Shown here: positions 1 to 3,629 of the stretch, one piece after another
How positions within the stretch are numbered: position 1 is the first letter of the stretch
How the letters are laid out: each line of letters begins with the position of its first letter
NCBI GenBank assembly: GCA_900316975.1
Contig: ONFA01000002.1
Span: forward strand, 1 to 64,000
Origin: an uncultured Prevotellaceae bacterium
GTDB lineage: Bacteria > Bacteroidota > Bacteroidia > Bacteroidales > Bacteroidaceae
Direction: 5' to 3'
DNA: 64,000 nt
Translations under genes and position numbers: made by a program
Notes under the pieces: generated by a model
The model's database searches: none
Seen by the model: the letters and a program-made list of their open reading frames with translations, nothing else
Told to the model about the DNA's origin: nothing

Positions 1-95
1 GCTGCTGGCAGAGTATCGGCTTTTAACTCCTGAGCGGAGCGATAACTCCTTTTAACTCCTTTAACTCCAATAAACTAAAACTTGCGAAAGTTGAA

Positions 96-824
96 TCATA
101 TTTCTTTTACTTTGAATACATTGTAGGAGATGTTCTCGTCGTATGCATCTGTGCGGTCAAAGCGCTTCACTAACTTGACCACTTGGATGGTGACGGGCAG
201 CACAAGGATTTCGTAGAGTGTCTTGGCAATGACTTGTGTGAACATTAGTTCGGACATGAGGGGAAGGGGCAGTTGGGGCTCGCCCATGAAGAAGAGGGGA
301 AAGATGTAGAATGCGAGAGGGAAAAAGATGAGGGAATCTGCGCTTTCTCCTGCCAGCGTGGAAAGGATGGCGCGCATGGAGAAGTGGTAGTCGAAGTTTC
401 CTTTGTGGCGGTCTGCCATCTTCATTTTGCTCATCACCAAGGCGTTGAGAAACGAACCGACGATGAAGGCGAGCAGGCTTGCCACTGCCACTTGGGGCGC
501 AAAAGCGAAGACTTGCTTGAAGGCATCATCGCTTCCCTCCACCGCAGCGGGGAGTGCGCAGGCGATGCCTCCGATACCCACGACAAAAAAGTTCATGAGG
601 AAGCCCAGCCAAATGATGAGTCGGGCTTTGCGGTAGCCCCACACTTCGGCAATGACATCGTTGAGGATGTAGGAGATGGGAAAAACTAAGAAACCGCAGG
701 TGAGGGTGATGGAACCCCATGCACGAAAAACTTTGGTCTCGAGAAGATTGGATGCCACAAGGCAGATACAGAAAACGATTCCTGCAATCATGAAGGAAAC
801 GCTCACTTGGTTGTTTTGTTTCAT
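96..824 (-). CDS. yhhQ: Queuosine precursor transporter, YhhQ/DUF165 (VUT) family
   Basis: The 242-residue protein is almost entirely hydrophobic, with about six predicted membrane segments, and matches the YhhQ family by memory of its sequence: an N-terminal segment followed by LLETKVF, then a segment ending YILNDVIAEVWGYRKAR, and a late VKLVKRFDRTDAYDENI tail. Family members import preQ0 or preQ1, precursors of the queuosine modification of tRNA. The ATG at 822-824 is the only sensible start. It stands 5 nt downstream of the last of three preQ1-I-like aptamers, which fits the assigned substrate independently. No other queuosine gene is nearby, so the cell may depend on salvage; that is inference. 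Confidence 0.93.
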   Translation of the reverse strand: MKQNNQVSVSFMIAGIVFCICLVASNLLETKVFRAWGSITLTCGFLVFPISYILNDVIAEVWGYRKARLIIWLGFLMNFFVVGIGGIACALPAAVEGSDDAFKQVFAFAPQVAVASLLAFIVGSFLNALVMSKMKMADRHKGNFDYHFSMRAILSTLAGESADSLIFFPLAFYIFPLFFMGEPQLPLPLMSELMFTQVIAKTLYEILVLPVTIQVVKLVKRFDRTDAYDENISYNVFKVKEI

Positions 825-829
825 TTGTT

Positions 830-861
830 CTTGTTTTTAACGAGGTTTGTCAAGCACTCGC
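830..861 (-). promoter_or_regulatory. preQ1-I-like riboswitch aptamer 3 (start-codon proximal)
   Basis: Read on the minus strand from 861: stem GCGAG pairs with CTCGT around the 12-nt loop TGCTTGACAAAC, followed by the A-rich tail TAAAAACAAG. Loop CUUG can pair with tail CAAG, the H-type pseudoknot of preQ1-I. The Bacillus subtilis aptamer loop recalled from the literature also has 12 nt, with U6, C8, U9, G11, A14, A16 and C17 at matching places. The pseudoknot strand ends 5 nt before the yhhQ ATG, so ligand binding should block translation initiation. Confidence 0.8.
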
Positions 862-891
862 TGGTTTTTAACGTGGTTATCTGGTACACGC
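861..891 (-). promoter_or_regulatory. preQ1-I-like riboswitch aptamer 2
   Basis: Middle of three units. Stem GCGUG pairs with CACGU, a compensatory change relative to CGAG/CUCG in the other two, around the 11-nt loop TACCAGATAAC, with tail TTAAAAACCAG. Only the outer two pairs of the pseudoknot (C-G and G-C) form; the inner two are mismatched, which resembles the imperfect P2 of the Thermoanaerobacter tengcongensis aptamer. Its first G is the last base of aptamer 1's tail, so the units touch. Confidence 0.65.
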
Positions 892-920
892 CTGTTTTTA
901 CGAGGTGGTCAGGCACTCGG
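891..920 (-). promoter_or_regulatory. preQ1-I-like riboswitch aptamer 1 (promoter proximal)
   Basis: First unit transcribed, about 15 nt after the predicted transcription start. Stem CGAG pairs with CTCG around the 11-nt loop TGCCTGACCAC, with tail TAAAAACAGG. Loop CCUG pairs fully with tail CAGG; compared with CUUG/CAAG in aptamer 3 this is a covarying pseudoknot pair. The closing base of the stem is a mismatch. Confidence 0.75.
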
Positions 921-937
921 ATTGTTGAAATCGGGTG

Positions 938-945
938 CAAAGGTA
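938..945 (-). promoter_or_regulatory. -7 promoter element for yhhQ
   Basis: TACCTTTG on the minus strand matches the Bacteroidetes -7 consensus TAnnTTTG. Transcription from it would give a leader of about 110 nt containing the three aptamers. It lies inside the left arm of the 936-1082 inverted repeat. No clear -33 TTTG was found. Confidence 0.7.
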
Positions 946-1072
946 GGAAATAATTAGGAATTAGGAATTAGGAATTAGGAATTATTTGCTTCTCAACTTG
1001 TCTTTTTTGCAAAAAAGCATCTCGGATGAGAAATAATTCCTAATTCCTAATTCCTAATTCCTAATTATTTCC

Positions 1073-1080
1073 TACCTTTG
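1073..1080 (+). promoter_or_regulatory. -7 promoter element for the 1116-7491 operon
   Basis: TACCTTTG, in the right arm of the inverted repeat, 35 bp before the ATG at 1116. It is the mirror image of the yhhQ promoter and probably drives the four-gene operon. Confidence 0.7.
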
Positions 1081-1115
1081 CAACTGTCTAATAAAAAACT
1101 CTAAATGACGATTCT

Positions 1116-3629
1116 ATGAATAGCATTGCAAATATGGCAATTGATGCGTTTGTCCTCTACGCTGATGAAAAGACGATGATGACTTTGAGTCAGTTGAAGG
1201 AGGAACCTCTGGTGAGAAATATATATGTGATGATGAAAGGTGGGGAGGAGTGCCCGTGTAAGGGATGTGAGGTAATTCGTGTGGATGATTACCGCAGTTC
1301 TGCCACCATCCGAAAGATGACGGAGGCATTGAAAGCTCCTTTTGCGTTGTTGTGTACGGCACAGACTCCTGTGACTTTTGGCTATCAGGCCATTCCCCGT
1401 ATGTGTTCGGTGGCAAGCAGCGTGGACTCTGCTGTGGTATATGCTGACCGCTATGTGGTGAAGAATGGTGAGACGACCAAATGTCCTACGATGGACTTCT
1501 ACTATGGCAGTGTGCGCGATGATTTTGATTTCGGCTCAGTTAGTCTGTTCAGTGCCGAAACGCTGCGGAGTTACATGGAGGAGTTTCCGAGTGTTAACTA
1601 CTTCTATTCAGGCTGGTATGACTTGCAACTTTTTGCTTTGCGTCGAAAACGCCGCTCGGCTCTTTTCCATCTGCGTGAGTACCTTTATACAGAGGAGGAA
1701 TTGGACCTGCGCACCAGCGGAGAGAAACAGTTTGACTATGTGAATCCCCGCAATCGGGAGGTGCAGAAGGAGCGAGAACTTGTGTGCACGAAACATCTGA
1801 GGTTGGTGGGTTCTTACATCGAGCCTGAGAGCATTGTGGATGTGTCGGTGGAACGATATGACTTCGATAAGGAGGCTTCGGTCATCATTCCTGTGAGGAA
1901 TCGTGTGAAGACAATTGAGGATGCCATCAGAAGTGCCTTGTCGCAACAAGCGACTTTTGATTTTAACGTGATGGTGGTGGATAATCTTTCGACGGATGGA
2001 ACAACGGAGGTCATTGAGAAACTGGCTGCTGAGGATGCGCGGGTAGTGCATATCATCCCGACCCGTAAGGATTTGGGCATTGGCGGGTGCTGGAGTCTTG
2101 CTTTTAATGATGACCGATGTGGGCGTTTTGCCATACAATTGGACAGTGATGATCTGTATAGTGGCACGGACACTTTACAGCGTATTGTGGATAAATTCTA
2201 TGAAGAGCATTGCGCTATGGTGATTGGTTCGTACCGAATGTGCAATTTCCAGTTGGAAACGCTGCCCCCTGGACTGATTGACCATCGTGAATGGACTGCG
2301 GAGAATGGTCATAATAATGCGCTGCGCATCAATGGATTGGGCGCACCACGTGCATTCTTCACTCCTTTGCTCCGAAAGATAGGGATGCCTAACACTTCCT
2401 ATGGGGAGGACTATGCTGTGGGCTTGGCATTCTGTCGTAAATATAAGATTGGAAGAATCTATGATGAGTTGTATCTCTGTCGTCGTTGGGAGGGTAACAG
2501 CGATGCTTCGTTGACTCCCGAACAGGTGAACCGCAATAACGTCTATAAGGACAGTCTTCGTACGATGGAAATCATTGACCGTCGCCGACTGAACGAGTAT
2601 TGGCAGAGCGGTGTGACGGATGGTTATGCAAACAGTTTGTTTGAAAGGCAATTGCCTGTGTGGAAGGAAGCCCGTGAACGCTACGGACAGTTGGCGGACG
2701 TTGATACGATGGAGATGGAGATTGACGGATGTAAATTGATGGTACAATATAATCCTGCACGTATCGTTTCTACGGGCGCAAAAGTGGATGCCCATACCAT
2801 CAAGCATCGTCCTTGTTTCCTCTGTGAGGTGAATCGACCAGAAGAACAAATCAGTAGCCCGATGTTGAAGAAGTATTATCTGCTGCTTAACCCGAATCCC
2901 ATTCTTCCGAAGCACTTCACCATTCCGCTCCGTCATCACCGCAGGCAGCAGATTCTTGACTACTATGAGGACATGATGGAGATTACGTCGCAACTCAATG
3001 AGATGTTTGTGTTCTATAATGGTCCTCAGTGTGGGGCGAGCGCGCCAGACCACATGCACTTCCAGGCTGGCAGCCGTGGGGTGGTGCCTTTGGAGCGTGA
3101 TTGGGCGGATTTGTATAAACCATATCTCTCGCGCATCTGGCCTATCAGTGAGGAGGAGTACATGGAGGCTATGAACATGTATCTGGTGGCTGACAGCACG
3201 GGGGTGTTCAGCCTTCGCAATTATCTGTGTCCGGGCATTGTCATCATCACCCGAACTCCACGTGCCAGCAAGATTCTTTTTGACAAGGTGTATAATGCTC
3301 TTCCCGTCAAGGAGGGTGAATATGAACCGATGATGAATATTTTTGCATGGTCGCAGTCAAGCAACACGGATGGCTATGAACGCATCGTGAGTGTCATCAT
3401 CCCACGTTCGAAACATCGTCCCGATTGTTATTATAAGCAGGGGGAGGAACAGGTGCTTGTCAGTCCTGGTGCACTTGACATGGGTGGTATGCTTATCACT
3501 CCGCGTGGGGAGGATTTCAAACGGATGAATGCGGAATTGGCAAGATCAATCATTCAGGAGTGTGGCATGTCGCTTGACGAGGAACTGGAGATGGTGATGA
3601 AATTTAAGGGTGGGGAGTTGAGGGTTTAG
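1116..3629 (+). CDS. Glycosyltransferase family 2 fused to a DUF4922 (HIT/GalT-like) domain
   Basis: 837 residues in three parts. Residues 1-230 look like a degenerate GT-A fold (the VVYADRY stretch near 107-113 resembles GT2 enzymes). Residues 254-460 are a full GT2 domain: ASVIIPVRNR, VVDNLSTDGT and the metal-binding DSDD at 343-346. Residues 560-837 resemble the HIT/GalT superfamily: a CFLC pair at 567-570, PILPKHFTIPLRHH, and GASAPDHMHFQ ending at 650, close to the HxHxQ site of ApaH-like and GalT nucleotidyltransferases. I recognise the C-terminal part as DUF4922, whose reaction is unknown to me. The fusion suggests a nucleotide-sugar handling step coupled to sugar transfer (inference). 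First gene of an operon with a SpoIID protein and two AmpG-like transporters. Confidence 0.82.
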   Translation: MNSIANMAIDAFVLYADEKTMMTLSQLKEEPLVRNIYVMMKGGEECPCKGCEVIRVDDYRSSATIRKMTEALKAPFALLCTAQTPVTFGYQAIPRMCSVASSVDSAVVYADRYVVKNGETTKCPTMDFYYGSVRDDFDFGSVSLFSAETLRSYMEEFPSVNYFYSGWYDLQLFALRRKRRSALFHLREYLYTEEELDLRTSGEKQFDYVNPRNREVQKERELVCTKHLRLVGSYIEPESIVDVSVERYDFDKEASVIIPVRNRVKTIEDAIRSALSQQATFDFNVMVVDNLSTDGTTEVIEKLAAEDARVVHIIPTRKDLGIGGCWSLAFNDDRCGRFAIQLDSDDLYSGTDTLQRIVDKFYEEHCAMVIGSYRMCNFQLETLPPGLIDHREWTAENGHNNALRINGLGAPRAFFTPLLRKIGMPNTSYGEDYAVGLAFCRKYKIGRIYDELYLCRRWEGNSDASLTPEQVNRNNVYKDSLRTMEIIDRRRLNEYWQSGVTDGYANSLFERQLPVWKEARERYGQLADVDTMEMEIDGCKLMVQYNPARIVSTGAKVDAHTIKHRPCFLCEVNRPEEQISSPMLKKYYLLLNPNPILPKHFTIPLRHHRRQQILDYYEDMMEITSQLNEMFVFYNGPQCGASAPDHMHFQAGSRGVVPLERDWADLYKPYLSRIWPISEEEYMEAMNMYLVADSTGVFSLRNYLCPGIVIITRTPRASKILFDKVYNALPVKEGEYEPMMNIFAWSQSSNTDGYERIVSVIIPRSKHRPDCYYKQGEEQVLVSPGALDMGGMLITPRGEDFKRMNAELARSIIQECGMSLDEELEMVMKFKGGELRV

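What the first reader, a model, noticed from the sequence alone, without database searches (positions are those of the whole stretch)
830..920. Three tandem preQ1-I-like riboswitch aptamers before a queuosine-precursor transporter
Three ~30-nt units each make a short stem, an 11-12-nt loop and an A-rich tail able to form the preQ1-I pseudoknot. Covariation supports RNA structure: stem CGAG/CUCG against CGUG/CACG, pseudoknot CUUG/CAAG against CCUG/CAGG. Each unit touches the next by one base, and the last ends 5 nt before the ATG of a YhhQ transporter. Single aptamers are the norm; three in a row suggest a steep or stacked response to preQ1.
Basis: partly seen in the sequence, partly recalled or inferred. 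Interest (0 to 1): 0.93.

Follow-up and report, generated by a model that had tools for sequence, protein, structure and literature searches.

The report
Triple preQ1 riboswitch in one leader
Just upstream of a queuosine-precursor transporter gene, in a bacterium related to gut Bacteroidaceae, lie three copies, joined end to end, of a tiny RNA motif; they are likely sensors of the queuosine precursor preQ1 and would together switch the gene off, in a sensor class that a 2022 survey lists as not found in tandem.

Summary
On the minus strand, between a TAnnTTTG box (945-938) and the ATG of a YhhQ/QPTR gene (824), lie three head-to-tail units (919-891, 890-861, 860-830) with no base between them. 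A model built only from single copies in other genera ranks these three 1st-3rd in the 64-kb window, unit 2 barely. The single motif precedes yhhQ in many relatives, and also queC and queD-queE; Rfam's preQ1 model, below its cut-off, picks some of the same places. All three units carry the AC signature of preQ1-I type II. Correction: the pseudoknot of unit 2 has only two of four canonical pairs, as has the Tte aptamer. In the genus 18, 7 and 5 of 30 leaders hold three, two and one unit. In 51 of 51 cases a unit is closer to a unit of another species than to its neighbours: a maintained array, not slippage. In the genomes searched, the only other tandem was a Prevotella doublet. PMC9481103 lists preQ1-I as not found in tandem. 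Most likely a translational OFF switch whose last unit hides the A-rich ribosome motif; ligand binding and cooperativity are untested.

The parts
938..945 (-). Bacteroidota-type -7 promoter box TACCTTTG, 18 nt before the first stem
   Evidence: Sequence; consensus TAnnTTTG from passages of PMC7366714; 16-19 nt in 25 of 29 parsed genus leaders (the others 43, 49, 51, 64)
891..919 (-). Unit 1: P1 919-916/904-901, specificity C 905 preceded by A 906, P2 913-910 (CCUG) with 894-891 (CAGG), L3 900-895
   Evidence: CCUG/CAGG in 17 of 18 triple arrays
861..890 (-). Unit 2: P1 890-887/875-872, specificity C 876 preceded by A 877, P2 884-881 (CCAG) facing 864-861 (CCAG; two canonical pairs of four), L3 871-865
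   Evidence: CCAG/CCAG in 10 of 18 triple arrays
830..860 (-). Unit 3, next to the start codon: P1 860-857/844-841, specificity C 845 preceded by A 846, P2 854-851 (CUUG) with 833-830 (CAAG), L3 840-834
   Evidence: CAAG tail in 18 of 18 triple arrays, CUUG in the fixed register in 17
825..829 (-). 5-nt spacer between P2 of unit 3 and the ATG; the L3 adenines of unit 3 lie at -14 to -10
96..824 (-). yhhQ/QPTR queuosine-precursor transporter, 242 aa; the window begins at a contig end, so the downstream gene is not visible here (queC then queF in the nearest relative, L045)
   Evidence: TIGR00697 98.6 bits, cut-off 50.95; Vut_1; L045 operon

Best explanation
The leader of this yhhQ gene carries three head-to-tail, zero-linker copies of a small motif, predicted to fold as pseudoknots, that are likely class I, type II preQ1 aptamers and would together act as a translational OFF switch for queuosine-precursor uptake and synthesis. 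Shown: three abutting units between a promoter-like box and the ATG; the shared signature; three units in 18 of 30 leaders of the genus; no terminator-like site and no internal ATG. Inferred: preQ1 binds each unit at the C that ends its loop (905, 876, 845). When the unit next to the gene is bound, its P2 helix and the docking of its L3 adenines would hide bases -16 to -6, which include the A-rich stretch (-14 to -11) that Bacteroidota ribosomes favour in place of a Shine-Dalgarno sequence. Units 1 and 2 show no start codon or terminator of their own, so they would act through unit 3: because the P2 strand of one unit runs straight into the P1 strand of the next, bound upstream units would stack end to end on it and stabilise it, and would turn the leader into a compact rod without single-stranded landing space. 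Expected result: tighter and steeper shut-off than with one aptamer.
For: R2, with no genus sequence in it, ranks the three units 1-3 in the window. Motif (R1, E up to 0.01) in 226 of 399 genomes of the family, 46 of 295 of the order, 6 of 395 of the phylum; the samples overlap. R1 hits found without gene information lie before queC-queF (L139) and queD-queE (L138), named by NCBIfam; of 19 further hits that I picked and fetched, 14 lie before yhhQ-like, 4 before queC-like ORFs and 1 before a nucleoside hydrolase. Nine of 112 listed RF00522 matches, among them the two best, lie within 62 nt of a yhhQ place (compared by eye). AC before the 3' strand of P1 in 53 of 54 units of 18 triple arrays, which defines type II (PMC11625349, section 4 read). 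P1 and P2: 94.6% of cells paired, covariation score 0.213 against 0.063 shuffled (0 of 500) and at most 0.054 slid. Array maintained: mean identity between species at one position 0.92, 0.86, 0.95 against 0.68-0.82 between positions; 51 of 51 units closer to a unit of another species than to their own neighbours (17 triples, G202 left out). Zero linker at 40 of 42 junctions parsed. No terminator-like site (only 0.3 expected by chance). A at -12, -13, -14 in 17, 18 and 18 of 18 triple leaders; A at -12 and -13 favours initiation in SD-less Flavobacterium (passages of PMC6847099).
Against: RF00522 does not reach its cut-off in the window stretch, the genome or any of 201 family genomes, and 103 of its 112 listed matches are not at a listed yhhQ. 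Unit 2 has a weak P2 and scores near noise with R2 (11.8 against 11.3 bits for the next match; not reported in the whole genome). The number of pairs with changes on both sides (3) is not unusual in shuffles (79 of 500). Folding energy is not unusual (z = +0.81). The other favourable positions, -3 and -6, are A in only 6 and 8 of 18. No ligand, structure or expression data. Stacking and cooperativity are inference from geometry.
Confidence: 0.75

Rival explanations
1. Only unit 3 regulates; units 1 and 2 are leftovers of duplication with little function.
For: Only unit 3 reaches the start region; five of 30 genus leaders have one unit (G230 by eye), and the leaders read from other genera have at most one recognisable unit, L085 excepted; unit 2 has a poor P2.
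Against: Position-specific conservation in 51 of 51 units; stem CGUG/CACG of unit 2 in 17 of 18 arrays, the 18th (G202) having CGAG/CUCA there; on a tree of 37 YhhQ rows a group of 23 has two or three units throughout (support 81/81, so shared inheritance is likely, not proven).
Confidence: 0.13
2. The array senses more than one ligand or affinity range: unit 2, with its different loop (UACCAG) and two-pair P2, is a weaker or differently tuned sensor (for example of preQ0), so the array spreads the response instead of steepening it.
For: Unit 2 differs from units 1 and 3 across species: CCAG/CCAG in 10 of 18, CUAG/CCAG in 2, a shortened tail in one, longer loops in others.
Against: It keeps AC and the A-rich tail; in 3 of 18 arrays its P2 is the ordinary CUUG/CAAG; the Tte aptamer, also with two of four canonical P2 steps, was solved with both preQ1 and preQ0 (PMC11625349).
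Confidence: 0.25
3. Direct repeats about 30 bp apart are DNA operators of a transcription factor.
For: The units are 29-31 bp long, near three helical turns.
Against: They lie downstream of the -7 box, up to the ATG; stem and pseudoknot change in a compensated way (CCUG/CAGG, CUUG/CAAG and CUGG/CCAG); preQ1-model matches at the same site in some relatives.
Confidence: 0.02
4. The array encodes a leader peptide (a GTG frame is open in this window and ends on the yhhQ ATG).
For: GTG in unit 1 opens 31 codons without a stop in G000; open in 5 of 18 triple arrays.
Against: The same frame has stops in 12 of 18 and lacks the GTG in one; no ATG inside in 18 of 18.
Confidence: 0.02
5. The array works by transcription termination (Rho) or by mRNA decay instead of translation.
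For: Long leader, several aptamers, no Shine-Dalgarno element to hide in this window.
Against: No terminator-like site in 700-1130; unit 3 ends 5-8 nt before the start codon in 18 of 18 triple leaders. Rho sites were not looked for.
Confidence: 0.1

Closest known systems
preQ1-I type II riboswitch (Tte, Bsu aptamers; Rfam RF00522)
   Same: H-type pseudoknot layout by sequence: short P1, P2 from loop to tail, A-rich L3, AC before the 3' strand of P1; Q-pathway genes downstream. [quoted passage not shown]
   Different: Three in a row without linker; four-pair P1; below the Rfam cut-off; no Shine-Dalgarno sequence in the tail (CAAG); the A-rich L3 itself lies where Bacteroidota ribosomes prefer adenines.
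preQ1-I type I riboswitch (Carnobacterium antarcticus)
   Same: More than one preQ1 per leader; cooperative sensing shown there.
   Different: There two ligands stack in one pocket (passages of PMC8752633); here three pockets in series, with AC (type II), not UC.
Tandem glycine riboswitch
   Same: Several aptamers of one class before one expression platform (passages of PMC9481103 and PMC2258182).
   Different: Glycine aptamers are larger and joined by linkers (recalled); here pseudoknots abut with zero linker.
Triple c-di-GMP-I riboswitch of Bacillus thuringiensis
   Same: Three aptamers of one class in one leader.
   Different: Listed under multiple expression platforms with more digital control (passages of PMC9481103); the two upstream units here show none.

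Membership tests
preQ1-I riboswitch, type II | AC immediately before the 3' strand of P1 | tested here: met
   All three units; 53 of 54 units in 18 triple arrays; definition from PMC11625349 section 4
preQ1-I riboswitch, type II | H-type pseudoknot: P1 hairpin whose loop pairs with the tail (P2) | tested here: inconclusive
   Met by sequence in units 1 and 3 (four canonical pairs); unit 2 has two of four. Covariation in relatives. Folding not probed.
preQ1-I riboswitch, type II | A-rich L3 between P1 and the P2 3' strand | tested here: met
   UAAAAA, UUAAAAA, UUAAAAA
preQ1-I riboswitch, type II | Located before queuosine synthesis or salvage genes | tested here: met
   yhhQ by TIGR00697; queC, queF, queD, queE in relatives
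preQ1-I riboswitch, type II | Score over the curated RF00522 cut-off (an annotation threshold, not a structural definition) | tested here: not met
   No match in window 1-3000 or the genome; 0 of 201 family genomes over the cut-off, best 29.6 bits against 39
preQ1-I riboswitch, type II | Binds preQ1 and changes expression | not testable with these tools
   Needs probing, calorimetry and reporters
Tandem riboswitch of one class | Two or more complete aptamers of one class in one leader | tested here: met
   Three units by sequence and by rank with R2; function of each untested, unit 2 the least sure
Pseudo-cooperative tandem riboswitch | Each aptamer has its own expression platform | tested here: not met
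   One start codon and no terminator-like site; nearer to the group of several aptamers with one platform (Table 1 of PMC9481103)

The most novel reading that the evidence does not exclude
Three preQ1-I pseudoknots fused without a linker fold as one continuous rod, P1-ligand-P2 stacked three times, so that preQ1 binding is truly cooperative through end-to-end helix stacking; the adenines that dock in the last unit double as the ribosome's A-rich landing motif, giving a riboswitch expression platform made for bacteria that do not use Shine-Dalgarno pairing.
Probability: 0.35. Interest if true: 0.87.

Novelty: new variant of a known kind. Interest (0 to 1): 0.75.

Why it matters
The 2022 survey of tandem riboswitches lists preQ1-I, -II and -III among the classes not found in tandem (PMC9481103, Table 3). 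Here is a conserved triple array, with natural leaders of one, two and three units within one genus, so the question of what extra aptamers buy (steepness, range, tightness) can be tested on leaders of one gene family. At about 30 nt per unit and without linkers it would be the most compact multi-aptamer switch I know of (from memory, not searched). It also suggests how a riboswitch can block translation where ribosomes do not use Shine-Dalgarno pairing: by folding up the A-rich stretch itself. And it shows that preQ1-like switches of this family lie below the Rfam cut-off (0 of 201 genomes over it, against 226 of 399 with R1) and so may be missing from surveys.

Tried and rejected
Rfam scan of 3 kb and of the leader alone at E up to 10: no preQ1 match; the strongest hits (MIR8643, MIR861) are miRNA hairpin models that match the long inverted repeat at 936-1082. 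Folding energy of the leader: no signal. Loose pseudoknot scan: 46 other candidates in the window, so topology alone is weak evidence. A first alignment of 65 units misaligned tails and was not used; the models use subsets chosen for tail length, 37 rows (A2) and 29 rows (A3). A2 left out short-tailed units, among them unit 1 of this window. For A3 my filter itself demanded four P1 pairs and CUUG/CAAG, so its pair counts are no independent evidence of pairing; 10 of its 29 rows are named contigs that I took as outside the genus from their YhhQ identity (50-58%), and several rows had been found with R1. DNA operator, leader peptide, replication slippage: considered and rejected as under rivals. 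Arrays elsewhere: family, order and phylum samples gave no second tandem locus; genomes with two matches outside the genus had them on different contigs or over 10 kb apart. These searches use strict filters that can miss units (the doublet of G141 was seen as one). Two genus matches (L129, L130) look like coding sequence and were set aside as chance (by eye).

Full report
What is there. The gene is on the minus strand: an ORF of 242 aa at 824-96 that NCBIfam names queuosine precursor transporter (TIGR00697, 98.6 bits, cut-off 50.95; the stricter PRK11212 model is not reached, 46.2 of 252) and Pfam Vut_1. Its leader, read 5' to 3', has a TACCTTTG box at 945-938, and 18 nt later three units that abut: CGAG-UGCCUGACCAC-CUCG-UAAAAA-CAGG, CGUG-UACCAGAUAAC-CACG-UUAAAAA-CCAG, CGAG-UGCUUGACAAAC-CUCG-UUAAAAA-CAAG. 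Five bases later comes the ATG. Units 1 and 3 can form P1 and a four-pair P2. In unit 2 the loop holds CCAG and so does the tail, giving two canonical pairs at the ends and two C-A oppositions between.

Is it more than chance. Nested folding energy says nothing (z = +0.81), and the bare topology is common. Comparative evidence decides. I fetched yhhQ loci from relatives (164 of 201 genomes of the family have a match at E up to 0.001, 30 loci taken; 80 named loci, some of them the same contigs). Of 107 leaders scanned with a loose parser, 99 gave at least one unit close to the start and 8 none (L072, L091, L093, L094, L102, L107-L109); of the 8, L093, L102 and L107-L109 show by eye a unit with an insert. 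The parser also gave some AT-rich chance hits, which I dropped. A model of 37 units (R1) and a second of 29 singles from outside the genus (R2) were built. R2 ranks units 3, 1 and 2 first, second and third in the 64-kb window with 48.9, 21.4 and 11.8 bits; the next match has 11.3. In the whole genome R2 reports unit 3 (E = 3.1e-6) and unit 1 (0.86) and not unit 2, so for unit 2 the argument is position plus conservation. R1 finds all three in the whole genome at E = 8.6e-9, 2.1e-7 and 0.002, next 0.92, but R1 contains units 2 and 3 of this window.

Is it a preQ1 aptamer. Rfam RF00522 gives no match in window 1-3000 or the genome. Over 201 genomes of the family it never reaches its cut-off, but the two best of its 112 listed matches (29.6 and 26.1 bits) and seven others lie within 62 nt of a yhhQ place listed (G056, G092, G086, G192, G065, G075, G159, G047, G044, compared by eye; one search does not list every yhhQ). 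The other 103 are elsewhere and look like chance. Gene context is independent: R1 hits that are not at yhhQ lie before queC-queF (L139) and queD-queE (L138), confirmed by NCBIfam. Of 19 more R1 hits that I picked and fetched, 14 lie before yhhQ-like ORFs, 4 before queC-like ORFs (G027, G170, G243, G326) and one, G117, before an IunH-type nucleoside hydrolase (read from translations; Pfam for the last). In the nearest relative (L045, YhhQ 98% identical) the operon reads yhhQ-queC-queF; in L031, L033 and L041 it reads yhhQ-queF (by eye). [quoted passage not shown] Here AC stands in 53 of 54 units of 18 triple arrays, and unit 2 has the two-of-four pattern. So I call it a variant of preQ1-I type II, noting that the Rfam annotation threshold is not met.

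Covariation. On A2 stem and pseudoknot pair in 94.6% of cells; covariation score 0.213 against 0.063 in shuffles (0 of 500) and at most 0.054 when slid. Pairs with changes on both sides: three, which 79 of 500 shuffles reach. P2 types seen in genus arrays include CCUG/CAGG, CUUG/CAAG and, in G141, CUGG/CCAG; Phocaeicola leaders have UUCUAG facing CAGGA (by eye).

How the array is distributed. Of 45 genomes of the genus, 32 encode yhhQ at E up to 1e-20; two of these (G217, G219, 46-47% identical) have no match to R1. The other 30 leaders hold three units in 18, two in 7 (G208 has in addition a degenerate stretch; the second unit of G201 read by eye) and one in 5 (that of G230 with a hairpin inserted in the loop, by eye). 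In the protein tree of 37 rows a group of 23 has two or three units throughout (support 81/81) and a second group of seven genus rows has one or two; eight changes in all. Outside the genus no tandem locus appeared among 399 family, 295 order and 395 phylum genomes (with 62 for G362; samples overlap, filters are strict, and the match list is cut, so I went by the number of matches per genome and their places). The one other tandem is a doublet in a Prevotella MAG (L085) with a linker of several bases.

Maintained, not slippage. Between species the same position is 0.92, 0.86 and 0.95 identical, different positions 0.68-0.82, and 51 of 51 units are closer to a unit in another species than to their own neighbours (17 triples, G202 left out because its units are arranged differently). 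Neighbouring units use different stems: CGAG, CGUG, CGAG in 17 of 18. The junctions have no linker in 40 of 42 parsed cases and 3 nt in two (G201 and G230 not parsed).

How it most likely works. The region 700-1130 has no terminator-like site, the array has no ATG in 18 of 18 triples, and its GTG frame has stops in 12 of 18, so the only platform in sight is the yhhQ start. Members of Bacteroidetes lack Shine-Dalgarno sequences; adenines at -3, -6, -12 and -13 favour initiation, and -14 to -11 are A-rich (passages of PMC6847099). In the 18 triple leaders A stands at -12, -13 and -14 in 17, 18 and 18, but at -3 and -6 in only 6 and 8. The adenines at -14 to -10 here are the L3 of unit 3, which in preQ1-I structures docks in the P1 groove (PMC11625349). 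Ligand binding would therefore hide the stretch that the ribosome favours. That step is inference, as is the stacking of units: P2 of one unit runs into P1 of the next without a base between, so coaxial stacking is the simplest geometry. Since upstream units show no platform of their own, they differ from the pseudo-cooperative tandems of PMC9481103, in which each aptamer has one.

Novelty. PMC9481103 lists PreQ1-I, PreQ1-II and PreQ1-III among classes not found in tandem (section 40 read). My searches for a report of tandem preQ1 aptamers (listings; passages of PMC11625349, PMC9481103, PMC8752633, PMC9495176, PMC2258182 and PMC3766115) showed none. The library lacks most subscription papers; McCown 2014 is not held, and Roth 2007 was not looked up (seen in reference lists only).

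Noticed in passing
window 936-987 and 1031-1082: A perfect 52-bp inverted repeat with 43 bp between its arms, made largely of AATTAGG repeats, lies between yhhQ and the divergent gene at 1116; each arm carries an outward-facing TACCTTTG box (boxes by eye). The leader of the nearest relative, G231 (L116), shows a similar repeat (by eye).
   Followed up: partly
L158 (G117), 1126-1157 minus strand: The single motif lies upstream of an IunH-type nucleoside hydrolase gene (PF01156), a possible queuosine-salvage hydrolase; QueK is a characterised nucleoside hydrolase of queuine salvage (passages of PMC11130926). Whether this protein is QueK-like was not tested.
   Followed up: partly
L007 (G141), 1426-1458: A doublet whose first unit has the stem of unit 1 but the CCAG tail of unit 2, and a loop (CUGG) that pairs with it: looks like a fusion after loss of a unit, with compensation.
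   Followed up: no
L126 (G230); L093, L107, L108, L109: Aptamers with an extra hairpin-like insert in the loop (by eye).
   Followed up: no
L085, 921-988: Doublet of two near-identical units with a short linker in a Prevotella MAG, probably an independent duplication.
   Followed up: no
window 1116-3629: 837-aa protein that joins a family 2 glycosyltransferase domain and DUF4922, with a weak Ap4A phosphorylase N-terminal match below its cut-off.
   Followed up: partly
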